Origin: Colwellia sp.
GTDB taxonomy: Bacteria; Pseudomonadota; Gammaproteobacteria; Enterobacterales; Alteromonadaceae
Direction: 5' to 3'
Length of the DNA stretch: 64,000 bases
Assembly (NCBI GenBank): GCA_013215385.1
Contig: JABSOY010000019.1
Location: 1-64,000 of the forward strand
Part shown: one piece after another, positions 25,105 through 37,511 of the stretch
Position numbering within the stretch: position 1 is the first letter of the stretch
Layout of the letters: each line of letters starts with the position of its first letter
Notes under the pieces: model-generated
The model's input: only the letters and a program-made list of their open reading frames with translations
What the model was told of the DNA's origin: nothing
Database searches by the model: none
Made by a program: the position numbers and the translations under genes

Positions 25105-26007
25105 TTAATTATTCAACAAATTAGCGGGTGAAAACTGGTCGGTCAGTAACTTAGTTTTTTCTGGCCAGTCTTGGTCTATACGGGTTGATGTCATTTGCTT
25201 GCTGATTTTAGACAGGTTTACCGAAAAAGGGATTAACCTGTCGTGTAATTTTTTAGCACGTAGAGCAATAACTTCTGCGCTAGGTAACTCGCCTTTAGCG
25301 GTTAAAATAATACGATTACTGTTTTTATAATTACGGACATTGTAAAAGTCTCCAAACACTTCCTTGTAGGTTGCTGATTCATGAGCATATAGTTTACTTA
25401 CCGAAAAAGTATTCGCACTTAAAATTCCGTTCGGGGTGAGTATGCTTTTTGCTTCTTGTAAAAACTCTTTAGTTAACAAATGCTCAGGAATATAATCGCC
25501 GTTAAAAGCGTCAAGAATTATCCAGTCGTACTGTTGTTTTTTTATCACGGCACGTTTGATAAAAATTCTACCGTCTTGCACTACTGAAGAAACGCGTTGA
25601 TTTTCAAAAAAACCAAAATATTGACGAGCGACTTTAATAACCGCAGGGTCAATTTCAACATTGGTTATAGTCGTTTCAGGGTAAATTTGTTGCAAAGTGT
25701 TCGACATTGTTCCGCCGCCCAAACCAATAATCAAAATGCTCTTGGGATCATCTACCAGTAATAACCCTGAGAAAAGTAGCTTGGTATAATTAAAAACTAA
25801 CTTCTGAGGGGCGCTTTTATATAAGCAGCTCTGGTTGGTTTTATTGGTTTTAACATTAAATTTTAAACAGCGTAAGTCGTCTTGGTCTTCAACTAAAATG
25901 TTGCGGTATAAAGAGCGTTCTTGATGAATAACTTCTGCTGAAATACTTTTTACAATAAGTACGTTCACTAGAAAAATAGTTGAAATTACTATATATATTT
26001 TATTCAT
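25105..26007 (-). CDS. spermidine-synthase-like methyltransferase-fold protein
   Basis: A 300-aa protein with an N-terminal hydrophobic segment (about 7-24) and a spermidine/spermine synthase-like Rossmann fold: ILIIGLGGGTMSNTL, NVEIDPAVIKVARQYFG and DGRIFI, then DAFNGDYIPEHLLTKEF. The nucleotide-binding half is intact, but the catalytic motif differs from the DSSDP of true SpeE, as in the 'fused MFS/spermidine synthase' group. It overlaps the preceding membrane-protein gene by 8 bp. The two together match one fused protein in other bacteria. Substrate not known. Confidence 0.8.
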   Translation of the reverse strand: MNKIYIVISTIFLVNVLIVKSISAEVIHQERSLYRNILVEDQDDLRCLKFNVKTNKTNQSCLYKSAPQKLVFNYTKLLFSGLLLVDDPKSILIIGLGGGTMSNTLQQIYPETTITNVEIDPAVIKVARQYFGFFENQRVSSVVQDGRIFIKRAVIKKQQYDWIILDAFNGDYIPEHLLTKEFLQEAKSILTPNGILSANTFSVSKLYAHESATYKEVFGDFYNVRNYKNSNRIILTAKGELPSAEVIALRAKKLHDRLIPFSVNLSKISKQMTSTRIDQDWPEKTKLLTDQFSPANLLNN

Positions 26008-26662
26008 TAACAGTATCTACCGTATGGATGTTAAATGATTTTATTGATTTATTTAGAATTATCGCAATAACACCTAACACTGCTAACACGGCACTAAAAA
26101 CAATAATAATGTTGTTTACTTCAAAAAATAATACCAAATAGAATGAGGTAATAATTGTACCTAAGGCGCTACCCAGTGTGGAAACGAAATAGAGTTTTCC
26201 GGCCACTTGGCCACTTTTATCTTTGTCGGTTACCAATAATCGCACGGAGTAAGGGGATATCATGCCTAAAATAATGGTGGGAATAAAAAATAATGCGCCA
26301 CAGGCAAGTAATGAACCGTAGCGGGAGTCTTCAACATTAAGGAAGATAACTTCCATAATGTCTGTTGACCAAAAGGCGACGGGTAAAATGGTGATACCAG
26401 CAAATAGAAAAATAATGCCGTAGCGTTTTAATGAAGGGTTATGTGTAGAAAGTTTACCGCCCGCAAGGTAGCCAAACGATAAGCTCAACATAAAGACGGT
26501 AATAATACTGCCCCAAATATGCACACTACTACCAAAGAATGGCGCAAGAATTCTGCCACCCAGTAATTCAATGCCCATAATGCAAAAGCCACTACAGAAA
26601 GCGAGTAAGTAGATGAAAGGGTTTTGTCGAGAGTCTGTATCGATTTTTTTAGAGTTAGTCAT
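26000..26662 (-). CDS. MFS-like membrane half of a spermidine-synthase system
   Basis: A 220-aa protein with about six membrane helices; motif GFCIMGIELLGGRILAPFFGSSVHIWGSII is the typical start of the membrane part of fused MFS/spermidine synthases. It overlaps the synthase-like gene by 8 bp, so both are co-translated and probably act as one complex at the inner membrane. Whether it exports the product is unknown. Confidence 0.8.
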   Translation of the reverse strand: MTNSKKIDTDSRQNPFIYLLAFCSGFCIMGIELLGGRILAPFFGSSVHIWGSIITVFMLSLSFGYLAGGKLSTHNPSLKRYGIIFLFAGITILPVAFWSTDIMEVIFLNVEDSRYGSLLACGALFFIPTIILGMISPYSVRLLVTDKDKSGQVAGKLYFVSTLGSALGTIITSFYLVLFFEVNNIIIVFSAVLAVLGVIAIILNKSIKSFNIHTVDTVNE

Positions 26663-27058: not shown

Positions 27059-29176
27059 TTATTTAGAAATTATTGTTTCAGCTTTTTTGGGTATTGTTAT
27101 TTTCCCAATAAAAGTATCATCAGGTGGTAGATCGTTAAAAATCAACCATTTCTCTTTTACTTTAAAACCTAAGATATCTTTTTTTGTAAATAATTTTATT
27201 TTCTCTTGGCGAGTTAAAAGATTTAACTCGATTAGATGTTTACCGTCTTTATTGATCTTGTATAATTTATTTTCACTGACAGACCATTGATCGTTTGCAG
27301 GGAATAATGTTTTACTAAAAAAAACTGATTTTTCAAAGGTATTGTCAGCTAAGTTGTAAGCATACAAACCTACTTTATTTTGCTTCGTCACTATATATTG
27401 TTGATAATTACAATTGCTTTGAATAGAGGTCACGGCATTAATAAATTTGCTCGATGAACCGTCGGTTAGGTTAATTTTATAAGTAGCCCAAACACCAGAC
27501 GATTGAGCAATAACTATAACTTCATTATTACTATCACAAGACCAAATAGCATTTCGAATTTTATCCGTCGGATGTGTAATGTTAATGACTTTATTTGTCT
27601 CTAATTTGAAAATTTTAAGTTGGTCATTAAGTTTAAATAGGATACTTCTGCCATCGCTAGAAAATAGTACATCGGTAATATAAGTATCGCTTTGTGTAAA
27701 CTGAGTTAATTGTGTTAATTGACCTTGTTTTTGTAACCATATTTGGTAATTACCCGAACGATTTGATACAAAAGCTATAGCTTTTATATCGTTAATCATA
27801 TGAATGTCGGCACTATGATCTTTAAATGTCGAATAAATTAATGACTCAACTTTTAGTTCATTCTCCGTTAAATCAACCTGTTTTATATTTGCTTTATACA
27901 AGTCACCAAAGGATAAAAGCAATTCATTGGCAGAGATAAAGGTATGTTCCATAATTACTTCTGAATGCTTAAATATAGCTGTAGTTTTTTTATTTATAAT
28001 ATTGGTTAAATAAAGCGTATTGGTATTATCAATGAAAGTTAAATAATTTGGATTTTTTGTCCAGGCAATAGAGTAAATAGCAAATCTTTTTTCTGTTATT
28101 ACTTCAATCTCGCCACTGGTAATATCTTGGATCATTACCGTGTTTTTATCATCATTAAACCGTCTTATATAGCTAATGTATTTATCGTCTGGACTTAAGC
28201 TCAGTCCGTAATCACCCGATAATTTATTGGGCGGAGCGGTTAAAGTTTCAATTTGTTTTGTTTCAAGGTGAATACGTTGAATGATACTGGCAGAACTAGC
28301 AGACTCATCAAATACATAATATAACCATTGCTGGTCTGAGCTTATTGCCATATTCGGTAGAGTATTTTCACCGCCACAAGATGTAATGTTTTCAATGTTA
28401 TTAATGTTTAAATATTTATCTACCTTTAATTTTTTAATAAAACACTGATTATTTATATGCGCAGCATAATAGACTTCATTATTTTCAATTGACCAAATGG
28501 GAGAGGTCGTTTCGATCATTTCATCAATAATAATAGTTTGCTTAGTTTTAATATTTTGAATGTGAATATGATAGTCAGCATGCTCATCTGCTAAGCTAAC
28601 ATAAGCGAGTAAGCTTTTATCTTGAGATAATGCTGGCTGAAACTCCCATCCCTCAGAGTAAGTCAGGGGTTCAATTTTTATTTTATCGTCGATTATCGTT
28701 ATTACGGCTTTATCCAGACTTGTTAATAATAGCCATAAAATGATAAAAAATACCATGGTGATAAGTGCGGCATACATCTTATATAGGGTTAAACTAGTTG
28801 TTGCTCTTTGTTCTACTTTTATCTTTTCTGGGGTCGGGCGATCTATAAACTTTACCGGAGCGGTAAACGAATAACCAAGTTTGGGATGGGTTTTTATGTA
28901 TTGCTCTTTATTACCACCAAGAATTTTTCTCAGACGAGAAACTGTGGCATTAATTGTACGATCATCAATAAAACGGTTATTCCAAACAAGCTCTATTAAT
29001 TGCTCCCTTGAGACTATTTTATCTTGTTTATCAATAAGACAATGTAATAAAGAAGCGTGCTTTGATTCCAAAGTTTCAGTTAGTATTGGGGCCTTATCAG
29101 TATCAATTGTCGTGAGGGTTTTTTTTAAAGGATCGAAAATCCAATCATTAATTAGAATTAGCTCTAGTTTGTCCAT
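27059..29176 (-). CDS. CadC/ToxR-type membrane transcriptional regulator with TolB-like propeller
   Basis: A 705-aa one-component regulator. Residues about 10-110 form an OmpR/ToxR winged helix (LLHCLIDKQDKIVSREQLIELVW, RTINATVSRLRKILGG, IKTHPKLGYSF). A single membrane helix follows (about 132-153). The rest is a periplasmic beta-propeller of TolB/WD40-type repeats (PALSQDKSLLAYVS, SPDDKYISYIR, SSDGRSILFKL). It would sense an envelope signal and bind DNA directly from the membrane. Its place next to the RiPP exporter operon makes it a candidate regulator of that locus; this is inference from proximity. Confidence 0.87.
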   Translation of the reverse strand: MDKLELILINDWIFDPLKKTLTTIDTDKAPILTETLESKHASLLHCLIDKQDKIVSREQLIELVWNNRFIDDRTINATVSRLRKILGGNKEQYIKTHPKLGYSFTAPVKFIDRPTPEKIKVEQRATTSLTLYKMYAALITMVFFIILWLLLTSLDKAVITIIDDKIKIEPLTYSEGWEFQPALSQDKSLLAYVSLADEHADYHIHIQNIKTKQTIIIDEMIETTSPIWSIENNEVYYAAHINNQCFIKKLKVDKYLNINNIENITSCGGENTLPNMAISSDQQWLYYVFDESASSASIIQRIHLETKQIETLTAPPNKLSGDYGLSLSPDDKYISYIRRFNDDKNTVMIQDITSGEIEVITEKRFAIYSIAWTKNPNYLTFIDNTNTLYLTNIINKKTTAIFKHSEVIMEHTFISANELLLSFGDLYKANIKQVDLTENELKVESLIYSTFKDHSADIHMINDIKAIAFVSNRSGNYQIWLQKQGQLTQLTQFTQSDTYITDVLFSSDGRSILFKLNDQLKIFKLETNKVINITHPTDKIRNAIWSCDSNNEVIVIAQSSGVWATYKINLTDGSSSKFINAVTSIQSNCNYQQYIVTKQNKVGLYAYNLADNTFEKSVFFSKTLFPANDQWSVSENKLYKINKDGKHLIELNLLTRQEKIKLFTKKDILGFKVKEKWLIFNDLPPDDTFIGKITIPKKAETIISK

Positions 29177-29415
29177 AATATTCTGTAGTTATCCGTATTC
29201 ATTACTGCATACAAATATTGGAAGACCTTACGCTAGAGTAAGATGTTCTGATAAATATTTGCTTTAATCATTTATTACCTTTGAGGTGAATGACACCACA
29301 TTAGCACATGTTTTACAAGAATTTTACAAATGTACAATAGATGAGAATATAGATACCTTTTATTACATTTCAATGAATTAGATAAAGTCTTGAGACTTGT
29401 ATACAAATAATGGGC

Positions 29416-29730
29416 TTACTTAAATAGTTTGTAATGGAGTAAGTAAAATGACAGCGGGATGAAAGTTAATGCTATGCATAAAATAATTGAAAAACGCGTA
29501 GAAAAAAACAATGCAAGAGAAAGTAATATGAGTAATGTATTGTGTAATTTGTCGACTTTTTTTGATTTAACGAAGGAAAAATGTAAATAATAACCACCTA
29601 AAAAGAATAGTGATATTTTAACCGCCACTAGCTCGAAAATATTATTTGGCAGTAACGCTAAACTTATTAGTCCTATAGCAACTAATTTAGATATAAAAAC
29701 GGAAAGGTCACGGCTTTCATCTTGGGTCAT
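29416..29730 (-). CDS. small membrane protein downstream of the RiPP exporter
   Basis: A 104-aa protein with three to four hydrophobic helices (about 12-28, 31-51, 62-82, 84-99), cytoplasmic N-terminus, no family recognised. It follows the C39-peptidase exporter gene by 93 bp on the same strand. Small membrane proteins in this position in peptide loci are often immunity or accessory proteins, but nothing in the sequence proves this. Confidence 0.6.
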   Translation of the reverse strand: MTQDESRDLSVFISKLVAIGLISLALLPNNIFELVAVKISLFFLGGYYLHFSFVKSKKVDKLHNTLLILLSLALFFSTRFSIILCIALTFIPLSFYLLHYKLFK

Positions 29731-29823
29731 ACGCTCTCTCGAAATTCAATGAATTTAATTTATACTCGATTTCTTGGGAATTAACGAATTATTTATCCCC
29801 CTTTTTATGAGGGCTCGTGTTGG

Positions 29824-31959
29824 TTAGCTACATTTTTTGCTCACGGATGTTAATTTGCCATTTTCCAGTAGCAGAATATGGTTTGCTTTATTAATGGTTT
29901 CTGGACGATGAGCAATAATAATACGTGTCATTTCTAAGTGCTTAATTTGCTCACTAATTTTGGCTTCATTATTAACATCTAAATGGCTTGTCGCTTCATC
30001 CATAAACAAAACACTAGGCTTTTTGTAAAGGGCTCTTGCTAAAAGTAATCGTTGTCTTTGACCTCCAGATAAACTTGACCCCATATCTCCTACTAGAGCG
30101 TTATACCCCATAGTCATCTTGGTGATATCTTTGTGAATGGCAGCTAGCAGGGCACATTTCTCGACTTGTAAGAAATTGGGTTCAGGATTAAAGAAGGTTA
30201 TGTTGTCAGCTATAGAGCCGGCCAGCAAAGTATCGTCTTGCATTACCGCCGCGACTTGTTGGCGATAGTTTTTTAAACCAATTTGTGTGATATCTTGCCC
30301 ATCTAATAAAATGCGACCTGAAGACGGTTGTAATAAACCGAGCATAAGCTTTGCTAATGTTGTTTTACCACAACCTGAATCTCCTGTAATTGCAACACAG
30401 TCACCTGCTGTAATTGTGATAGACAAGTTATCAATGATGTTGCTTTCGTCTTCACCGTAACTAAAGCAAACGTTTTCCAACGAAATCTCACCCTTTACCC
30501 CCTTGTTACTTGCCAGTAAAATATTGCCTTCACGATTAGGTTCTTGTTCATGCAAGGCAATGTCTGAAATTCGGTCGAGATGCAATCGCATCATTTTAAA
30601 TTGTATAAGCTGCTCAATTAAGCTTGTAACACGTAGGGTAAGTTGACCTTTATAGGCGATGAAAGCGAGCACCATACCTATTGATAGGCTGCCCTCTATG
30701 ACTAACATAGCGGCAAAATAAATAACGATAACATTTTCAAGACCAAATAATACTTTGTTAATACCATCAAATCCTATGCGTAATTTTCCTAAGCGAATAT
30801 CAGCGTTAATGACCTCTGCGTATCTATTTTGCCAGATACCTTGGCGTTGAGATTCATTACCAAAGAGTTTAATGGTCTGAATACCTCTAATATTTTCTAA
30901 AAAATTACTTTGCTCTTTAGCTGAATTTTGAATAGATTCTTCAGTTGCTTGATGTAAAGGTCGATATAAAGCAAGTCGTGCAATGACATATAATACGATT
31001 GCTGCTAATACTACCAGTGATAGCTTTACACTGTAGAGCATCATCATGACTAGAACAGTAATTGACATTACGCCATCAACAGTTGCCTCAACTAAACCTG
31101 TGGTAATACGCTCTCGAATTTGTGCCAAAGAGCCAAACCGTGAAACAACATCACCAATATGTCGAGACTCAAAATAGCTCATCGGTAGACGTAACAAATG
31201 TCGTAGTAAATTTACCCCCATCTGCATATTTAACAGACTCGATAGCCTTAACACCAGCCAGCTACGTACAGAGGTTGCTAATACATTAAATATACTTAAT
31301 AAACCAAAACCTATAGCAAGCACAATCAGTAGAGGTTGGTCGTGACTAATTAATACTTCATCAACTATCCACTGCATATAATATGGAGTAGCTAAAGCGA
31401 ATATTTGCAAAACAACAGACAGGGCAAAAAGTTTTAGTAGAGCACTTTTTAAACCGGTAATTTTGCTCCATAACTGTGACAACTTCATTTTTTGCTTTTC
31501 GTTTTTAGCTTCAAACTTATTTGTTGGTGTTAGTTCTAAAACAATACCGGTAAAATGCTGGCTAAACTCTTTAATTGATAATACTTTTTTCCCCATTGCA
31601 GGATCATTAATAAACACTTTTTTTTTGGTTGTTTTTGTTAAAACAACAAAATGATTCATATCCCAATGCAGCACGCAGGGTAAGGCTAGTTTTTGAACAT
31701 CTTCAACAGGACATTTCAATGCTCTACTTGCTAATCCTAAGCTATCTCCTAAATCAATCAGTTGTCGTAGGTTCATGCCTTTAAGATTTGCCGAAAAACG
31801 TTTCCGCATGGCGGGCATGTCTAACTGATGACCGTAATATGATGCAACCATAGCAATAGAAGCTAAACCACATTCTGCAACTTCTGCTTGTAAAATAAGC
31901 GGTACGCGCTTTGCGCTGGAGAACTCTAAAAGTTGCTCAGTATTCGCTGCTATATCCAT
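29824..31959 (-). CDS. peptidase-containing ABC transporter (C39 peptidase, PCAT)
   Basis: A 711-aa exporter that cleaves double-glycine leaders and exports the core peptide. The N-terminal C39 cysteine peptidase (about 18-140) has Cys30 in AEVAECGLAS, His103 in HWDMNHFVVL and Asp119 in INDPAMG, so the triad is complete. About six membrane helices follow (165-450), then the nucleotide-binding domain with Walker A GDSGCGKTT (near 522), LSGGQRQR and Walker B VLFMDEATS. It has its own copy of the upstream three-block element. With the HlyD-type protein encoded at 35788 it would form a type I secretion path, using a TolC encoded elsewhere. Confidence 0.93.
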   Translation of the reverse strand: MDIAANTEQLLEFSSAKRVPLILQAEVAECGLASIAMVASYYGHQLDMPAMRKRFSANLKGMNLRQLIDLGDSLGLASRALKCPVEDVQKLALPCVLHWDMNHFVVLTKTTKKKVFINDPAMGKKVLSIKEFSQHFTGIVLELTPTNKFEAKNEKQKMKLSQLWSKITGLKSALLKLFALSVVLQIFALATPYYMQWIVDEVLISHDQPLLIVLAIGFGLLSIFNVLATSVRSWLVLRLSSLLNMQMGVNLLRHLLRLPMSYFESRHIGDVVSRFGSLAQIRERITTGLVEATVDGVMSITVLVMMMLYSVKLSLVVLAAIVLYVIARLALYRPLHQATEESIQNSAKEQSNFLENIRGIQTIKLFGNESQRQGIWQNRYAEVINADIRLGKLRIGFDGINKVLFGLENVIVIYFAAMLVIEGSLSIGMVLAFIAYKGQLTLRVTSLIEQLIQFKMMRLHLDRISDIALHEQEPNREGNILLASNKGVKGEISLENVCFSYGEDESNIIDNLSITITAGDCVAITGDSGCGKTTLAKLMLGLLQPSSGRILLDGQDITQIGLKNYRQQVAAVMQDDTLLAGSIADNITFFNPEPNFLQVEKCALLAAIHKDITKMTMGYNALVGDMGSSLSGGQRQRLLLARALYKKPSVLFMDEATSHLDVNNEAKISEQIKHLEMTRIIIAHRPETINKANHILLLENGKLTSVSKKCS

Positions 31960-32051
31960 GGTCTATCCTTGCTTTGTGAATTATTCAATAGCACTTTTAC
32001 TGGTGATTATTTTATTAATAAAGTTGATATTGTTTATTACTTGCGAAATAA

Positions 32052-32160
32052 GTTAACAAGTCTTTTTTTTGTCAGCAAGGGGGAACGTCGCCGCACACCT
32101 TGCTTGTTTCTTAAGTTGTTGTTTATATGTTGTTTTGTTTGGGTTGTATTAATGTTGTGA
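32052..32160 (-). promoter_or_regulatory. three-block upstream element, copy A (before the exporter gene)
   Basis: Read on the plus strand: GTTAACAAG (32052-32060), TTAAGTTGTT (32111-32120) and TTGTATTAATGTTGTGA (32144-32160). The same three blocks occur upstream of the precursor and HlyD-type genes. The first-to-second block spacing is 59 bp in every copy. It ends 92 bp before the exporter start. Confidence 0.7.
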
Positions 32161-32283
32161 TTAGAACCCGAGGCAGGTTTTAAGCTAATAAGCGTTTTAA
32201 ATTAACAATTATATTTAACTTTATATCAAGGAAATATGTTTAGCAGTAGCTATATTTAGTAGCTTTTCTCTTCTTTATTGTTT

Positions 32284-32320
32284 GGAGCAGTCTTTAATTT
32301 TTTATTTAAAAGATTGCTCC
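32284..32320. repeat. long inverted repeat after the ATP-grasp genes
   Basis: GGAGCAGTCTTT pairs with AAAGATTGCTCC, with further A-T pairs around the loop. It lies about 45 bp beyond the stop of the second ATP-grasp gene. It may stop that transcript, though no T run follows on the minus strand. Confidence 0.5.
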
Positions 32321-32365
32321 ATAAAGAGAATATTAACTCGTTGGTTAATATCTTTATGCCAATAT

Positions 32366-33352
32366 CTATTTAGTTATATTATTGGCCAAGTGGTTTGCTA
32401 TAGCCGCACAAATTTCTTGTTTTTGGTATTTCTCTGCCCAATAAAATTCACCACAGGGATTAATTTCTAAAAATTTAAGTTCGCCTTTGGGCGTTAAAAT
32501 ATAATCAGCGGCTCCATAATTTAGTCCTAGGCTTTTTGTTAGCTTTATCAACTTTTGTGTTTCTTCATCAGGTAGTTGATAAGGGAACCAAGCTTCTAAA
32601 GTTGTTGAACCTTTTCTACGCCAATCGTAATTTTCAGTTTGAAATTTATTGCTATCGATAGCAATGCAAAAAACGTTATTACCAACGACGGTTGCCCGAA
32701 GCTCCAGCTCTTTTTGTAATGATTGCTGAAACTGCATAGGGCATAAACGTAGATCGGCTAAGTTTTCTAAATCGCTCTCTTTTACAGGATTGGTAAAGAC
32801 GACACTTTCTTTTCCATCGGCATAAATAGCGAAAGCTGTTTGCATTTTGGTAATAATATTACCCTGATGTTTATGATAGAAGTTAAGAGCAGCATCGGGG
32901 TTATTAGTGGTCAGCGTATCAGGGATATCAATGCCATGCTCTCGAGCTTTAATGAGCTGTAACTCTTTGGATGAAGCGCGACGAATGGCCCAATAGTCAT
33001 CTATTTTAAAAACATCTAAAGCATCAAAATAACCTAATAAAGTACGCTTAGACTCTTCAATACAAGCATCTCGAGTTTGCCTATCAATATCTTTTGGTAA
33101 ATCTCTGCCAATATGGAAACGACGATACCAAATAGCGCCAATATCCGCTAAGTTATATTGTTCGCCTGTTTCTAACGTTAATATTTGTTCGTTTTCAGTC
33201 CCTTGATATGATTCAATTTTAATTTTTGTTGGGAATAGATCTGAATTCAATCTGACCGCTTTAATACCGTGTTTGGCTAAATGCTCAGATACAGCAGCAA
33301 TACAAGGGTTATCATTACTATGAGTTATAATTAATACGACTTTATTGTTCAT
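32366..33352 (-). CDS. graspetide ATP-grasp ligase (MvdC/MvdD family), second
   Basis: About 328 aa from the ATG at 33352, which has AAAGGA 8 bp upstream; a TTG at 33370 would add six residues that include this ribosome site. It belongs to the ATP-grasp family that closes side-chain ester or amide rings in microviridin-type peptides. Marks: ITHSNDNPC near the N-terminus, WYRRFHIG, LELRATVVG, DYILTPKGELKFLEINPCGEF with the metal-binding Glu and Asn. It overlaps the first ligase gene by 11 bp. One of the two should make esters (MvdD-like) and the other the lactam (MvdC-like); sequence inspection alone does not say which. Confidence 0.88.
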   Translation of the reverse strand: MNNKVVLIITHSNDNPCIAAVSEHLAKHGIKAVRLNSDLFPTKIKIESYQGTENEQILTLETGEQYNLADIGAIWYRRFHIGRDLPKDIDRQTRDACIEESKRTLLGYFDALDVFKIDDYWAIRRASSKELQLIKAREHGIDIPDTLTTNNPDAALNFYHKHQGNIITKMQTAFAIYADGKESVVFTNPVKESDLENLADLRLCPMQFQQSLQKELELRATVVGNNVFCIAIDSNKFQTENYDWRRKGSTTLEAWFPYQLPDEETQKLIKLTKSLGLNYGAADYILTPKGELKFLEINPCGEFYWAEKYQKQEICAAIANHLANNITK

Positions 33353-34343
33353 GAAGGTGTCCTTTATCAATATTGTTTTTTATACATTGTGCGATATGAT
33401 CTGTGATTGGGTAATCGAGTGTTTTTTGTAACATGCCCCATTCACCGCAGGGATTAACTTCTAAAAAGACATAATCACCATTGGTTGCTCGTATAATGTC
33501 TAACGCGCCAAAATTTAGGGAGAGTTTGTTCATCAACTTATTTATTTTTTGACAAATGTTTTCGGGTAATTGATAGGCCTGCCAGAAAAAGTCTTCTTGT
33601 TTTGCCCGTCGCCAATCAGGCTTTTTGTCATCAGTTATCGCGCTCGTTGCTATTTTTCCGGTAAAATAATATCCGTCAACGTATATAACCCTTAATTCGT
33701 ATTCTTTTTGAATTTCTTGCTGAAATTGCATCGGGCAGTATTTTAAACCATCTAAATTGGCTAAATGCTTCTCTTCAACTTTTGAGGTATAGACAAAGCT
33801 TTTGGTCGATTTCATAAAATTAGTTAACGGCGTTAACATTTTAGAAATAATGCTGCCATTTTCTTGGTAATAGAAGTTTTTTACGGCAACTGGAGAATTG
33901 CTTAATAACGAGTTAGGTATAATTAAACCACATTGTTTGGCTAGGATAAGTTGCAGTTGTTTATTTTCAGCACGCTGGATATCAAAAGGGGAGTCGAACC
34001 AGAATATAGACTCTAAAGCATACAGCACTGCGTTTTTGGCTACGGTAGACTCTTTTGTCGCCTGATTCAGGGTTTTTCCAGCTAAAGCGGACGTTAAGTT
34101 TGAGTGTAAGTTCTTTCTAAACCAAACGGCTGCAAACTCTGATAGTTTGTGGGTTTCTTCTGCGATTCTAATTGAACCGCTAACCCCATCTACATTTTGC
34201 TGTGCGGAGATTTCGATGCTTAATGGAAACGTATCAGTATCCATTCTTATCATCTGTAAATTTAATTTGGCTAAACTAGCGGACATTAAATCCGTAACGT
34301 AATAATCTTGACTGTGGGTTAAACATAAAACTTTATTGTTCAC
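33342..34343 (-). CDS. graspetide ATP-grasp ligase (MvdC/MvdD family), first
   Basis: A 333-aa paralogue of the next gene, starting at a GTG behind an AGAGAA site. It shares NNKVLCLTHSQD, VWFRKNLHS, YELRVIYVDG, LNFGALDII and LEVNPCGEWG, with the metal-binding Glu and Asn at the end. It probably recognises the PFFxxFLE helix of the precursor leader and forms one class of ring. It begins 60 bp after the precursor stop, behind a hairpin with a T run, so it is expected to be made at a lower level than the precursor. Confidence 0.88.
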   Translation of the reverse strand: MNNKVLCLTHSQDYYVTDLMSASLAKLNLQMIRMDTDTFPLSIEISAQQNVDGVSGSIRIAEETHKLSEFAAVWFRKNLHSNLTSALAGKTLNQATKESTVAKNAVLYALESIFWFDSPFDIQRAENKQLQLILAKQCGLIIPNSLLSNSPVAVKNFYYQENGSIISKMLTPLTNFMKSTKSFVYTSKVEEKHLANLDGLKYCPMQFQQEIQKEYELRVIYVDGYYFTGKIATSAITDDKKPDWRRAKQEDFFWQAYQLPENICQKINKLMNKLSLNFGALDIIRATNGDYVFLEVNPCGEWGMLQKTLDYPITDHIAQCIKNNIDKGHLHEQ

Positions 34344-34363
34344 TTTTATTCTCTTTTCAAGTC

Positions 34364-34392
34364 AAAATAAAAAAGTGCTGCTAAGCAGCACT
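34364..34392 (-). terminator. partial terminator between precursor and ligase genes
   Basis: AGTGCTGCT and AGCAGCACT form a perfect 9-bp inverted repeat (34374-34392). On the minus strand it is followed by TTTTTTATTTT. It lies just after the precursor stop and before the first ligase start, the usual place for an attenuator that keeps precursor in excess. Confidence 0.75.
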
Positions 34393-34403
34393 CTCAGGGT
34401 GAA

Positions 34404-34577
34404 TTACATTTCTAATTCGCCGCCTTCATCACCGTCTGAAGGATATTTCATTGTATGTACTAATTCATCTTTACGTTTGTCAGTGATAACGCAGCCGCCG
34501 TCACCAGGTAGAATGCCACCAGTAACTTGCTCAATATCTTGCTCTTCTAAAAAATTACTAAAAAATGGTTTGTTCAT
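34404..34577 (-). CDS. microviridin/graspetide precursor peptide
   Basis: A 57-aa precursor. The leader has PFFSNFLEEQ (4-13), close to the PFFxRFLE helix that microviridin ligases bind. A double-glycine site follows (VTGG, 18-21) for the C39 peptidase. The C-terminal core reads TMKYPSDGDEGG from Thr42. TxKYPSD is the hallmark of microviridins, whose Thr-Asp and Ser-acid esters and Lys-acid amide make a cage; known members inhibit serine proteases. Here Thr42-Asp48 and Lys44-Glu51 have the canonical spacing, while the Ser47 partner at +3 is Asp50, not Glu. An AAGGAAT site precedes the ATG. It is followed by an attenuator and two ligase genes. Confidence 0.93.
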   Translation of the reverse strand: MNKPFFSNFLEEQDIEQVTGGILPGDGGCVITDKRKDELVHTMKYPSDGDEGGELEM

Positions 34578-34590
34578 TATTTATTCCTTT

Positions 34591-34623
34591 TAATATCCGA
34601 CATTATTTATTATTAGACGTCGG
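34591..34623 (-). promoter_or_regulatory. 5' leader motif of the graspetide precursor mRNA
   Basis: TAATATCCGACAT (plus strand, 34591-34603) recurs exactly upstream of the second peptide gene at 35531. CCGAC pairs with GTCGG (34619-34623) across an AT-rich loop, giving a small stem-loop just ahead of the ribosome site. It may be a shared mRNA element or protein site. Confidence 0.5.
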
Positions 34624-34743
34624 GTTCTTTGAATTATTAGTTCGTTTATTATTAAACGAGCTAACGGGACTTTATTAGCAAAAGGGCAGGTAATAGATAT
34701 TCAAGAATATCTGTATTTCCAGCTTCTTTTGCTTGAGAAATAC

Positions 34744-34862
34744 GTTAACAAGTCATTTTTTATCGAACAAGTGCGGCAGAGTGATAATATTTCATTGTGT
34801 TTTTAAGTTGTTATTTATCAATGGTTAACGAGGTTTTTTTGTGCGTTGTATTAATGTTGTGA
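34744..34862 (-). promoter_or_regulatory. three-block upstream element, copy B (before the precursor gene)
   Basis: Plus-strand blocks GTTAACAAG (34744-34752), TTAAGTTGTT (34803-34812) and TTGTATTAATGTTGTGA (34846-34862). The 59-bp spacing of the first two equals copies A and C; the last gap is 10 bp longer, about one helical turn. It lies about 166 bp before the precursor start and should drive precursor and ligases. Confidence 0.7.
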
Positions 34863-34920
34863 ATAGACTGTAATGATTTCCAACTAAAATTAGCTAACAA
34901 TTCATCTTAGACTTTAAATT

Positions 34921-34948
34921 TAATGGCTAATGGCTAATGGCTAATGGC
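34921..34948. repeat. 7-bp tandem repeat, four units
   Basis: Four perfect direct copies of TAATGGC lie just upstream (minus-strand sense) of element copy B. Copy number could vary by slippage and change promoter context. Confidence 0.85.
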
Positions 34949-35373
34949 TTTAAGCTGAGTGTATTTAAAAATGAGGTTTAATTCATCCTAGGGGAATGTT
35001 CTTTGTTTGTTGGAAGTATTTATTATTAGATTAGTGTTAGTTGCAAAGGAGCTATTATAAAAACTGATAAAGCATTCAATATATTGCTTTTCAAATTGAT
35101 GGGGGAAAATCGTTATATTAAAGAGTCTTTATAATTGTATGTTTAGCGTTTCCCTTGCCTGATATTTTGAGCTGTTTGCTTAAATTATGGTGGTCTAATG
35201 GAGAAGATGAATAATTCCCACATAATTAAATGTCACAAGAGGGTATTGAAATCATTTAAAGTTGTTAGTCGTAAATATCTAGTAACCTATTACCATTAGT
35301 TAATTCAAAGTCGGCACACATAAATTTAAGCAGTAAATTAACTACCATAAATTTTATTATGTTGAAATTATGT
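34949..35373. other. intergenic between the two peptide genes
   Basis: About 425 AT-rich bases with no supportable gene. Reading the minus strand for further leader-type peptides, only frames of fewer than ten codons were found after ATG. A 33-codon plus-strand frame near 35198 has no recognisable features. Confidence 0.5.
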
Positions 35374-35520
35374 TTAGCGCACTGGAGGCCCAGATAGCGC
35401 CTTGTTAAAATCATCAATGAACTTCTTTCTAGCATACGACCATTCAACTGCAACGTTGAAAATACTGGCGCTACCAGAAACTGTTTCAATTTCATTTGTT
35501 GATAATTCTTTCATCGTCAT
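35374..35520 (-). CDS. putative bacteriocin-like peptide precursor with double-glycine-type leader
   Basis: A 48-aa frame that is too short for most gene finders. The first 17 residues, MTMKELSTNEIETVSGS, fit the leaders cut by C39 peptidases (basic start, Leu-Ser-x3-Glu-Ile, Val-Ser-Gly, small residue). The remaining 31 residues begin ASIFNVAVEWSYARKK and end ALSGPPVR, with no Cys and a net positive charge. A second ATG is at codon 3. No strong ribosome site is visible. It shares a 13-bp 5' motif with the graspetide precursor and lies between the adaptor and precursor genes. It lacks a TxKYPSD core, so it is not an obvious ligase substrate. Confidence 0.65.
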   Translation of the reverse strand: MTMKELSTNEIETVSGSASIFNVAVEWSYARKKFIDDFNKALSGPPVR

Positions 35521-35530
35521 TCATTTATTA

Positions 35531-35566
35531 TAATATCCGACATATCTTTATTATTAATATGTTAGG
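35531..35566 (-). promoter_or_regulatory. 5' leader motif of the second peptide gene
   Basis: TAATATCCGACAT (35531-35543) is identical to the motif 13 bp upstream of the graspetide precursor start. An imperfect stem (CCGACATAT with ATATGTTAGG) follows on the same pattern. Position relative to the ATG (10 bp) is close to that in the other gene. Confidence 0.45.
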
Positions 35567-35787
35567 TGGGGTTTTGCTGTCGCTGTCGCGGCTTAACGGG
35601 GCGAGGGTATCACTCATTAAGAGTGTTTTTCACTAACCATTCTCAGATCGAGTAAGGGATGGTTAGTAATTAATCGCTAGTCTAATTGTTTATGGTAATA
35701 GCACTATTGATAAATTATCTGGTTAATCTTTGTTTAGCTAGATATACCCGTGTGATACTGCTGTAGATTTTCATGGGTTTACCTTAT

Positions 35788-37035
35788 TTAATTTAACCGG
35801 CCATTTAGACTGTAAATGGGTTCAAGCAGCCATTCTATTAATGTACGTTTGTCCAACATAATATCGGCATTAAAAAGCATACCACTTTTCAAGTTAAATT
35901 TTTTGCCATAGCCTTGAATAAATTGCGTATTTAACTCGGCCTGAAGGCGATAGACGGGTTCGTTCATCGATACGGGAAAATCAACGTCGTTTTGGGTGAT
36001 CAACGTTTTATCAATACGAATTATTGTACTGGCTAAAAAGCCAAATCGTTGGTGAGGAAAGGCATCAAACCGTAAACGAGCGATGTCGCCTTCTTCAATA
36101 AACCCAGCCGAGCGAGTTGGCAGTAACAGCTCGGCAACTAGTTGAGCTCCTTCTGGAAAAATGGTTAATAAAGGGCGTATAGAATTTAATGTTTCCCCTT
36201 CAACTACTTGAATAGACGTTACCATTCCTGCATGTGTTGCACTGACTACATAGCTATATTCGTTTTGCGTTTCACTGAGCTGGCGTGATAAGTCTGATCT
36301 TTTGCGTTTTAACTCACGTTTTTTTGTTATGTACTGCTGTGGAATATTAACTTGATCATACTTTAGTTGAGACAACTCATCTTGTTGGTTAATTAATGTA
36401 TAGATTAATAGTTCAGCTTCTTGGCGTACATTAATATGACGTTCTTGCTGTTCCTGATATTCAAGTTCAGAGATATGTCCTTTTTTTGCTAATTTTTCAA
36501 ATTGAATATTCTGCTGGTTAAATAGCGCTAGCTTCTCCTTTAAAAGGAGTTGTTGCGCTATTATCACTTCACGAGATTTATTTAATGAAGTTTGTTTTTG
36601 TTCAATTCTTATAAGCTCAAGTTGTTCAAGTTGAACAAGTTGCTCTTCCTCCTCAGCGAGTAGATTGATTTGTATTTCAAGTTCATTAATAAGTTTTTCA
36701 CTAAGTTCTTCACCATTATTCATATTTCGTTGACTAATAATACGGATTAACGGTGTGCCTTGAGTTACGAATTGACCTTCACTTATAAATATTTTCTCTA
36801 TAGTACCATTGCGATTAGAGTAACTTTTAATGAGCCCCTTATCAGGGCGCAAGAAACCTTGCACAGTCTCTTTTCGTGCATATTCAGCACTAAATAAAAA
36901 GATAATGGTCAAGATTACCACAGCAACAATAAGCGATGAGGTTATTTTTATTGATAACGGTTGAGCTAAAGAAATAGAGCCAACTAACCGTTGTGTTTGA
37001 GCTTCAACCGCTTCTTTTCTAAATAATTGAGTCAT
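35788..37035 (-). CDS. HlyD-family membrane fusion protein (peptide export adaptor)
   Basis: A 415-aa periplasmic adaptor: cytoplasmic N-terminus (1-30), one membrane helix (about 32-50), then a half-lipoyl domain (VQGFLRPDKGLIKSY, GTIEKIFISEGQFVTQGTPLIRI), a long coiled-coil hairpin (about 125-260), a second lipoyl half (HAGMVTSIQVVEGETL) and a beta-barrel (FPHQRFGFLASTI). It links the C39 exporter to an outer-membrane TolC. It is preceded by element copy C and followed, after 267 bp, by the second peptide gene, so both may be one transcript. Confidence 0.9.
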   Translation of the reverse strand: MTQLFRKEAVEAQTQRLVGSISLAQPLSIKITSSLIVAVVILTIIFLFSAEYARKETVQGFLRPDKGLIKSYSNRNGTIEKIFISEGQFVTQGTPLIRIISQRNMNNGEELSEKLINELEIQINLLAEEEEQLVQLEQLELIRIEQKQTSLNKSREVIIAQQLLLKEKLALFNQQNIQFEKLAKKGHISELEYQEQQERHINVRQEAELLIYTLINQQDELSQLKYDQVNIPQQYITKKRELKRKRSDLSRQLSETQNEYSYVVSATHAGMVTSIQVVEGETLNSIRPLLTIFPEGAQLVAELLLPTRSAGFIEEGDIARLRFDAFPHQRFGFLASTIIRIDKTLITQNDVDFPVSMNEPVYRLQAELNTQFIQGYGKKFNLKSGMLFNADIMLDKRTLIEWLLEPIYSLNGRLN

Positions 37036-37147
37036 TCTATTTTTCCATCATAACTGTCATCTTTAATTCATAAATCTTTATTTTTGGAGATTATTAATGT
37101 AAACCAAGTTAGCCGTACAATAAGGGCTTTTTTATTAGTAAAAATAA

Positions 37148-37254
37148 GTTAGCAAGTGTTTTTTTTATCAGCAAGCCTAAAAATAAAATAATGCGCCATC
37201 ATACTCTTAAGTTATTGTTTTTATGGGTGAATAAGTAGTGTTGTATTAATGTTG
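37148..37254 (-). promoter_or_regulatory. three-block upstream element, copy C (before the HlyD-type gene)
   Basis: Plus-strand blocks GTTAGCAAG (37148-37156), TTAAGTTATT (37207-37216) and TTGTATTAATGTTG (37241-37254). The first two blocks are again 59 bp apart and the last two 34 bp. It ends 112 bp before the adaptor start. Confidence 0.7.
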
Positions 37255-37454
37255 CAAATAAGTTGGGTAGTGTTTACTTTCACGGTTTTATTATTTTAAG
37301 GCTGCTATAGCAATAAGTTATGAAATTTAATCACAGCTATTATTGTTTTAGAGATTTCTTGAGTCTGCATTTTAGGAAAAATGACTTTATCAATTCCTAG
37401 TGAAATGAACTTTAATTTATACTTAAAGTGAATTGATTTATTTGAATATTAAAT

Positions 37455-37481
37455 AAAAAAGCGAACAAAATTTTGTTCGCT
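37455..37481 (-). terminator. uvrA terminator
   Basis: GCGAACAAAATTTTGTTCGC (37461-37480) is a perfect palindrome; on the minus strand TTTTTTATTT follows. It is 31 bp after the uvrA stop. Confidence 0.88.
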
Positions 37482-37511
37482 GTTGTTAGTAATCAACCTT
37501 TATATAATTAA

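What the first reader, a model, noticed from the sequence alone, without database searches (positions are those of the whole stretch)
29824..37254. Complete microviridin/graspetide locus with its own C39 exporter and adaptor
Seen: a 57-aa precursor with PFFSNFLEEQ, a double glycine and TMKYPSD; two ATP-grasp genes; a C39-peptidase ABC exporter with full Cys-His-Asp triad; an HlyD-type adaptor. Known: TxKYPSD plus MvdC/MvdD ligases define microviridins, which are protease inhibitors mostly known from cyanobacteria, with some in Proteobacteria and Bacteroidetes. Inference: this bacterium makes, cleaves at the double glycine and secretes a graspetide. No N-acetyltransferase (MvdB) gene is present.
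Basis: partly seen in the sequence, partly recalled or inferred. Interest (0 to 1): 0.85.

Follow-up and report, generated by a model that had tools for sequence, protein, structure and literature searches.

The report
Graspetide riding a microcin-type export locus
A marine bacterium carries genes for a microviridin/marinostatin-like protease inhibitor placed inside an export locus that in related bacteria goes with unmodified microcin-like peptides, and these peptide genes share a folded RNA leader for which no match was found in the RNA family library searched.

Summary
The locus is real. The 57-aa precursor matches the microviridin/marinostatin family (NF033738, 53.6 bits, cut-off 26); two ATP-grasp genes are MvdC- and MvdD-like; the exporter's C39 domain keeps Cys, His and Asp; an HlyD adaptor is present. 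As a graspetide it is a new member of a known kind (class III precursor, core TMKYPSDGDE).

Two things change the picture. First, the exporter is probably not the graspetide's own: 21 loci with close homologues (71-81% identity) carry candidate double-glycine (GG) microcin-like peptides but no graspetide ligase. In Colwellia sp. TT2012 five graspetide precursors lie beside eleven tiny GG peptides and a C39 exporter. Second, the precursor has a two-hairpin 5' leader (34591-34666, minus) also found before GG-peptide genes. In other genera a three-hairpin version covaries strongly (17 of 27 pairs changed on both sides), and 51 of 54 genome matches precede a GG-peptide ORF. No Rfam match was found. 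Exporter, graspetide and HlyD units share a promoter module whose core occurs perfectly only three times in the genome.

Chemistry, cleavage and regulation are inferred.

The parts
34404..34577 (-). graspetide precursor: leader MNKPFFSNFLEEQDIEQVTGG, then 36 residues ending TMKYPSDGDEGGELEM
33342..34343 (-). MvdC-like ATP-grasp ligase (predicted lactam former)
32366..33370 (-). MvdD-like ATP-grasp ligase (predicted lactone former); ATG at 33352 is the likelier start
29824..31959 (-). C39 peptidase-ABC exporter whose close homologues sit in GG-peptide loci
35788..37035 (-). HlyD-type periplasmic adaptor
35374..35520 (-). second candidate cargo: MTMKELSTNEIETVSGS / ASIFNVAVEWSYARKKFIDDFNKALSGPPVR, colicin V-like leader (recalled) but GS at the cleavage site; no family match; possibly degenerate
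34591..34666 (-). compact 5' leader RNA element of the graspetide gene (two hairpins, then the Shine-Dalgarno)
   Evidence: not found genome-wide by R1 at E<=0.1
35531..35606 (-). weak copy of the leader element before the second peptide
   Evidence: E 0.43, 0.14
32046..32165 (-). promoter module before the exporter
34738..34867 (-). promoter module before the graspetide unit
37142..37260 (-). promoter module before HlyD
27059..29176 (-). probable membrane regulator: winged helix (Trans_reg_C), one strongly hydrophobic segment, TolB-like propeller; homologue in 10 of 21 exporter loci
25105..26662 (-). split MFS/spermidine-synthase-like pair conserved beside the regulator in some relatives (flank of the locus, not claimed as part of the pathway)

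Best explanation
A graspetide module (precursor plus MvdC- and MvdD-type ligases) occupies a GG-peptide (class II microcin-like) export locus. The ligases bind the PFFSNFLEEQ leader and close two ester rings and one amide ring (predicted T42-D48, S47-D50 and K44-E51), giving a tricyclic inhibitor of a subtilisin- or chymotrypsin-like serine protease. The locus exporter cuts after VTGG and exports the 36-residue product with HlyD and an outer-membrane channel encoded elsewhere (not searched). The exporter, graspetide and HlyD units share a promoter module, probably bound by the CadC-like regulator next door. The precursor mRNA carries the same kind of folded 5' leader as GG microcin-like genes, so the graspetide is made and exported as one interchangeable cargo of this system. 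Shown: gene content, family membership, conserved residues, synteny, covariation of the leader. Inferred: chemistry, cleavage, target, regulator-promoter link, role of the RNA.
For: Family matches; closest structures are graspetide ATP-grasp ligases; C39 Cys/His/Asp kept. GG leader spacing fits the double-glycine pattern. T42, S47, D48, D50, E51 invariant in 6 of 6 precursors aligned. Same modules in Colwellia sp. TT2012, with 11 tiny GG peptides and 5 graspetide precursors beside a C39 exporter, and in Colwellia NORP201. 21 loci with exporters 71-81% identical: GG peptides by regex in 19 of 21, in the other two only by a looser pattern that also gives chance hits; ligases in 0 of 21 and regulator in 10 of 21. 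Leader element: window copy E=0.0022 in 104,833 bases with a model not trained on it; 18 of 20 hits of that search lie within 45 nt of a GG or graspetide start. Three-hairpin form: 17 of 27 pairs changed on both sides, 0 of 500 shuffles as high; 51 of 54 genome matches, 35 of 38 untrained, have a GG-leader ORF within 60 nt, against 538 of 9300 random positions. Promoter core: 3 perfect copies in 5.1 Mb, all here; same module at L006 (twice) and L023.
Against: No product, cleavage or expression data. Both ligases and HlyD score below NCBIfam cut-offs. The TT2012 exporter is more distant (56% identity), so that locus is not the same chassis. The second window peptide is weak: GS not GG, no family, leader element only E=0.43, fold z -1.16. 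Searched against the whole own genome, R1 finds no element at E<=0.1; R2 finds it but was trained on it. The three-hairpin model R3 finds nothing in the own genome at E<=0.01 and in the window only an opposite-strand match (E=0.095), so compact and three-hairpin forms are linked by shared loop letters, position and partial cross-hits, not by one model. The compact model's pair counts come from an alignment fitted to the structure, and one measure was unexceptional (further pair types, 214 of 500 shuffles). Three of 54 R3 matches have no GG ORF by the test. The promoter pattern was derived from the three sites it then found; six hits with up to one mismatch against three for the backward control.
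Confidence: 0.74

Rival explanations
1. A stand-alone microviridin cluster with a dedicated exporter; the resemblance to GG-peptide loci only reflects the shared C39 exporter family.
For: Exporter, adaptor, ligases and precursor are contiguous on one strand; graspetide clusters with C39 exporters are known (PMC13039773 introduction; PMC8939145 passages; PMC10885120 passages).
Against: Same flanking order (spermidine-synthase pair, regulator, exporter, peptides, HlyD) without ligases in L049; 0 of 21 loci have ligases; shared kind of leader RNA.
Confidence: 0.15
2. The cluster makes a marinostatin-like bicyclic peptide with ester bonds only, the second ligase being inactive or used differently.
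For: Core TMKYPSDGDE closely resembles the marinostatin-type TMRYPSDSDE; NORP201 and the marinostatin-type genome G025 each show one graspetide ligase.
Against: The window and TT2012 have both ligases, and their cores keep the acceptor Lys and the last Glu; the NORP201 genome is a 3.0-Mb metagenome assembly, so a missing gene proves little.
Confidence: 0.12
3. The hairpins before the peptide genes act as DNA (a recombination site for shuffling cargo genes, or paired protein-binding palindromes) rather than as RNA.
For: Tandem 287-293-bp repeats carrying element and gene in TT2012; three elements lie before aborted or missing ORFs (L049, L023, L022).
Against: Hits lie on the coding strand a few bases before the start codon and, in closely spaced peptide runs (L049, L061, L062, L064), only before the first gene; stems vary in sequence while pairing is kept.
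Confidence: 0.15
4. The cluster is decaying and silent.
For: Only 2 of 98 relatives, own genome included, hold the precursor family; the second peptide ORF looks degenerate.
Against: The precursor and the four large ORFs are open with intact motifs; ligases and core residues are conserved in TT2012.
Confidence: 0.07

Closest known systems
Microviridins (MvdC/MvdD with MvdE; class III precursors)
   Same: precursor family, two ligases, PFF leader motif, TxKYPSD core, GG motif plus C39 exporter as in class III (PMC13039773 introduction)
   Different: not cyanobacterial or Bacteroidetes but related to Colwellia loci; Asp at the second ester position instead of the usual Glu (recalled); a 20-residue segment between GG and the ring core; placed in a GG-peptide locus; shared kind of leader RNA
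Marinostatin (Alteromonadales graspetide; sequence recalled)
   Same: TM[RK]YPSDxDE core; the precursor of G025, same family of bacteria, reads PFATMRYPSDSDE
   Different: Lys instead of Arg and a second ligase here, so a lactam is predicted; the G025 precursor gene has no exporter homologue within about 8.5 kb on either side
Class II microcin systems (colicin V type; PMC9746304, passages read)
   Same: C39-ABC exporter plus HlyD, short GG leader, small peptides
   Different: non-enterobacterial; many tiny peptides in some loci; a modified graspetide as cargo; conserved leader RNA

Membership tests
microviridin/marinostatin graspetide (NF033738, Inhibitor_I10) | precursor scores over curated cut-off | tested here: met
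   53.6 vs 26 bits; 30.7 vs 21
microviridin/marinostatin graspetide | ATP-grasp ligase(s) of MvdC/MvdD kind beside the precursor | tested here: met
   best matches TIGR04185 and TIGR04184, though both below equivalog cut-offs; PDB homologues 7m4s, 5ig9
microviridin/marinostatin graspetide | ester/amide rings in the product | not testable with these tools
   needs mass spectrometry; ring residues conserved
tricyclic microviridin | Lys acceptor, terminal Glu and a second (lactam) ligase encoded | tested here: met
   K44, E51; MvdC-like gene 33342-34343; activity untested
class III microviridin precursor | GG motif, one C-terminal core after a long stretch, C39 exporter nearby | tested here: met
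   class definition
class II microcin (ORF 35374-35520) | GG or GA cleavage site in the signal sequence | tested here: inconclusive
   spacing fits but the site is GS; definition
any Rfam family (5' leader element) | match at E<=1 | tested here: not met
   no match on the element in L006, L022, L023, window 29000-37510, L070, L072, L073, L078

The most novel reading that the evidence does not exclude
A previously undescribed class of structured 5' leader RNA marks double-glycine microcin-like genes across this bacterial family and controls their translation or mRNA stability; a graspetide pathway has been plugged into the same RNA-controlled, multi-cargo export platform.
Probability: 0.65. Interest if true: 0.75.

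Novelty: new variant of a known kind. Interest (0 to 1): 0.6.

Why it matters
It links two peptide classes usually treated apart, ring-forming graspetides and unmodified microcin-like peptides, as cargo of one export system, which can be tested directly with one C39 domain and two substrates. The leader RNA is a strong search tool: 51 of 54 genome matches point at very short GG-peptide ORFs of a kind that gene finders easily miss. If it is regulatory, it would be a new RNA control layer for bacterial antagonism peptides. The relatives also give a small natural series (one or two ligases; Tyr or Ala in the core) for asking how ring number evolves.

Tried and rejected
Integron attC sites as an explanation for the repeated hairpins: the core-site consensus (recalled) does not fit the letters seen. 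A pseudoknot between the loop GTTTAG and a downstream CTAAAC was noted in some compact elements (sequences) but is broken in others (L022 14337 and 14649, L006 1250), so it was left out of the models. Rfam microRNA hits in the window at 32278-32326 are far below gathering scores and taken as chance. One search tested matches on the wrong strand for minus-strand loci and is replaced. Window matches of R1/R2 at 33494 and 32354 lie in or beside ligase coding DNA and are taken as chance. R2's score for the window leader (53.7 bits) is not independent, because that copy was in its training set; R1's 28.1 bits is. The three matches at E 0.43-0.63 (window 35531, L006 2715, window 33494) were dropped by the E<=0.005 limit before R2 was built. 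One weak R2 match (G213, E=0.039) had no GG gene beside it. Of the top exporter places I left out one with a stop codon inside (G208). L072:12210 and the L073 element before 10886 were left out of alignment A7. The printout was cut (parts of L073-L075 not seen); GG counts for these come. Literature: microviridin with Colwellia gave 0 papers; searches on GG peptides, graspetides, bacteriocins and RNA motifs listed no paper on a structured leader before such genes, judged from titles and abstract starts only; one search gave three papers with both marinostatin and microviridin. Papers: PMC13039773 abstract, introduction and section 2.1; PMC8939145 abstract and passages; PMC9746304 and PMC10885120 passages; all others listing only.
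Full report
Observation. The precursor passes the curated cut-offs of Pfam Inhibitor_I10 and NCBIfam NF033738. The ligases are best matched by the MvdC and MvdD models, both below the equivalog cut-offs, and their nearest solved homologues are AMdnB (7m4s) and the ATP-grasp ligase 5ig9. The exporter has a C39 domain aligned to 6mpz with Cys, His and Asp kept and an HlyD partner.

What the peptide is. The leader ends L-12, D-8, I-7, V-4, G-2, G-1, the spacing of double-glycine leaders; the strict pattern finds two ORFs of 25-130 aa in the 64-kb window, the precursor and a 48-aa ORF at 35374-35520. Six aligned precursors (window; Colwellia NORP201; the three distinct ones among the five of Colwellia TT2012; the marinostatin-type one of genome G025) keep T42, S47, D48, D50 and E51; Lys44 is Arg in the marinostatin type; Tyr45 is Ala in two of the five TT2012 copies. 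By the classes given in PMC13039773 (introduction read) it is a class III precursor. I predict two esters and one amide; ring assignments other than the Thr-Asp ester named in that paper (section 2.1 read) are recalled from the microviridin literature, as is the protease preference.

How rare it is. NF033738 is found in 2 of 98 relatives, own genome included, and in 2 of 369 genomes sampled from the class, own included. A scan of genome contigs with the MvdD-like ligase, which finds close relatives only, gave Colwellia NORP201 and Colwellia TT2012. NORP201 and G025 each show one graspetide ligase, TT2012 two.

The export locus. Homologues of the exporter at E<=1e-100 occur in 154 of 295 family genomes, own included, and in none of the five other genomes of its genus. 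I fetched 20 stretches around close homologues plus L049. L049, in another genus, has the window's order (spermidine-synthase pair, regulator, exporter, GG peptides, HlyD) with no ligases. Ligases were absent from all 21 loci and the regulator present in 10; GG peptides were found in 19 of 21 by the stricter pattern and in the other two only by a looser one that also gives chance hits. In TT2012 a C39 exporter is followed by eleven tiny GG peptides (33-36 aa), five graspetide precursors and both ligases, although that exporter is only 56% identical to the window's. NORP201 has a window-like exporter (89%) and regulator (55%) with two tiny GG peptides on one contig (L023), and the graspetide precursor, MvdD-like ligase and three GG peptides on another (L006).

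Shared promoter module. Two conserved blocks spanning about 120 nt precede the exporter, graspetide and HlyD units. The core ACTTGYTAACKTATTT has three perfect matches in the 5.1-Mb genome, all here, and three one-mismatch matches elsewhere; the backward control gave three in all. A looser form of it was found at six places in 235,840 bases of 12 sources: these three, before the NORP201 exporter, and before its graspetide and one GG gene. It holds a direct repeat TTGYTNA 19 bp apart in the window copies before the exporter and the graspetide (read by eye), as OmpR/CadC-type regulators often use (recalled); the neighbouring regulator has such a winged-helix domain, a hydrophobic segment and a propeller. 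The link is inferred.

The leader RNA, compact form. Upstream of the precursor and of GG peptides in NORP201 and TT2012 I saw hairpins just before the Shine-Dalgarno. A covariance model from five copies (R1) found 20 matches at E<=0.005 in 104,833 bases, including the window leader (28.1 bits, E=0.0022), which was not in training; 18 of 20 lie within 45 nt of a GG or graspetide start. Pair counts: 94.0% of cells paired against 86.5% in shuffles, 5 pairs with changes on both sides (8 of 500 shuffles as high), further pair types unexceptional (214 of 500). In eight whole genomes R1 hit only NORP201 (4) and TT2012 (14) at E<=0.1; the window copy did not reach that limit against its whole genome. 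R2, which was trained on the window copy, hit 3 of 295 family genomes: the own one, G190 (two places) and G213 (E=0.039, no GG gene beside it). In the syntenic loci R2 gave 17 weak to strong matches, 14 of them within 45 nt of a GG start.

The leader RNA, three-hairpin form. The GG genes of other genera, and one in NORP201, have a longer leader. On a plain sequence alignment of 17 of them, with the structure of one member, 87.0% of cells pair (shuffles 74.9%), 17 of 27 pairs have changes on both sides (shuffles 9.2; 0 of 500 as high), covariation 0.350 (shuffles 0.153; slid structures at most 0.069), further pair types 33 of 500 shuffles as high. RNAalifold on its own recovers hairpins 1 and 2 but not 3. 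Model R3 gives 53 matches in 33 of 295 family genomes, 16 of 52 genera, and matches 4 of 247 genomes sampled from the order, one of them (G061) outside the family. I tested all 54 places: 51 have an ORF with a GG leader starting within 60 nt downstream (31 of 31, 20 of 23). Sixteen of the 54 were training copies, so 35 of 38 untrained places pass. The three misses are a place where the GG reading frame lacks a normal start codon (L137), one with a short unrelated ORF (L145) and one weak match, E=0.00244 (L146). The same loose ORF test succeeds at 538 of 9300 random positions. Rfam at E<=1 gave nothing on the element. Single-sequence folding: window graspetide leader z -3.00, second window leader z -1.16, L006 copy z -2.78, L070 z -5.20.

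Limits. R3 does not detect the window's compact element, so the homology of compact and three-hairpin forms rests on the shared loop TTTAGCGA (weaker in the window copy), the shared last hairpin, position, and cross-hits in L049 (E=0.00075) and L023 (E=0.0039). Three compact elements stand before aborted or no ORFs (L022 13682, L023 4138, L049 6867), unexplained. What the RNA does is unknown; I favour control of translation or mRNA stability, because it ends at the Shine-Dalgarno and in closely spaced peptide runs appears only before the first gene.

Verdict. The graspetide is a new member of a known kind. The arrangement, a graspetide as one cargo of a GG-peptide export platform with a common kind of leader RNA, is a new variant; the RNA itself may be a new class.

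Noticed in passing
L022:9673-12919: Eleven tiny GG peptides of 33-36 aa in a row, several with about 19-residue hydrophobic mature parts, partly on 293-bp repeats.
   Followed up: partly
L022:14434-15806: Five tandem graspetide precursors, partly on 287-bp repeats; two have TMKAPSD and an 8-residue longer linker.
   Followed up: partly
L006:4252-6163: A group II intron with an ORF that looks like its reverse transcriptase lies among the GG-peptide genes of NORP201.
   Followed up: no
L025:5934-14015 (own genome, contig C37): A second C39 exporter and an HlyD-like ORF beside two large ORFs that look like lanthipeptide enzymes by eye; not tested.
   Followed up: no
L049:6867-6929, L023:4138-4199, L022:13682-13744: Near-identical compact leader elements before aborted or missing ORFs; two sit directly downstream of the exporter gene.
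   Followed up: partly
window 25105-26662: A split MFS/spermidine-synthase pair stays next to the regulator in L049, L066, L067, L068 and L077.
   Followed up: no
G025 contig C19:39458-39559 (L147): The genome with the marinostatin-type precursor has an R3 leader match before a GG peptide (MRELNLSETKNVNGG...) about 1.1 kb ahead of a C39 exporter, on another contig than the precursor.
   Followed up: partly
L137 (G148:C1:632073-632201, minus): A leader element precedes a GG-peptide reading frame that lacks a normal start codon.
   Followed up: no
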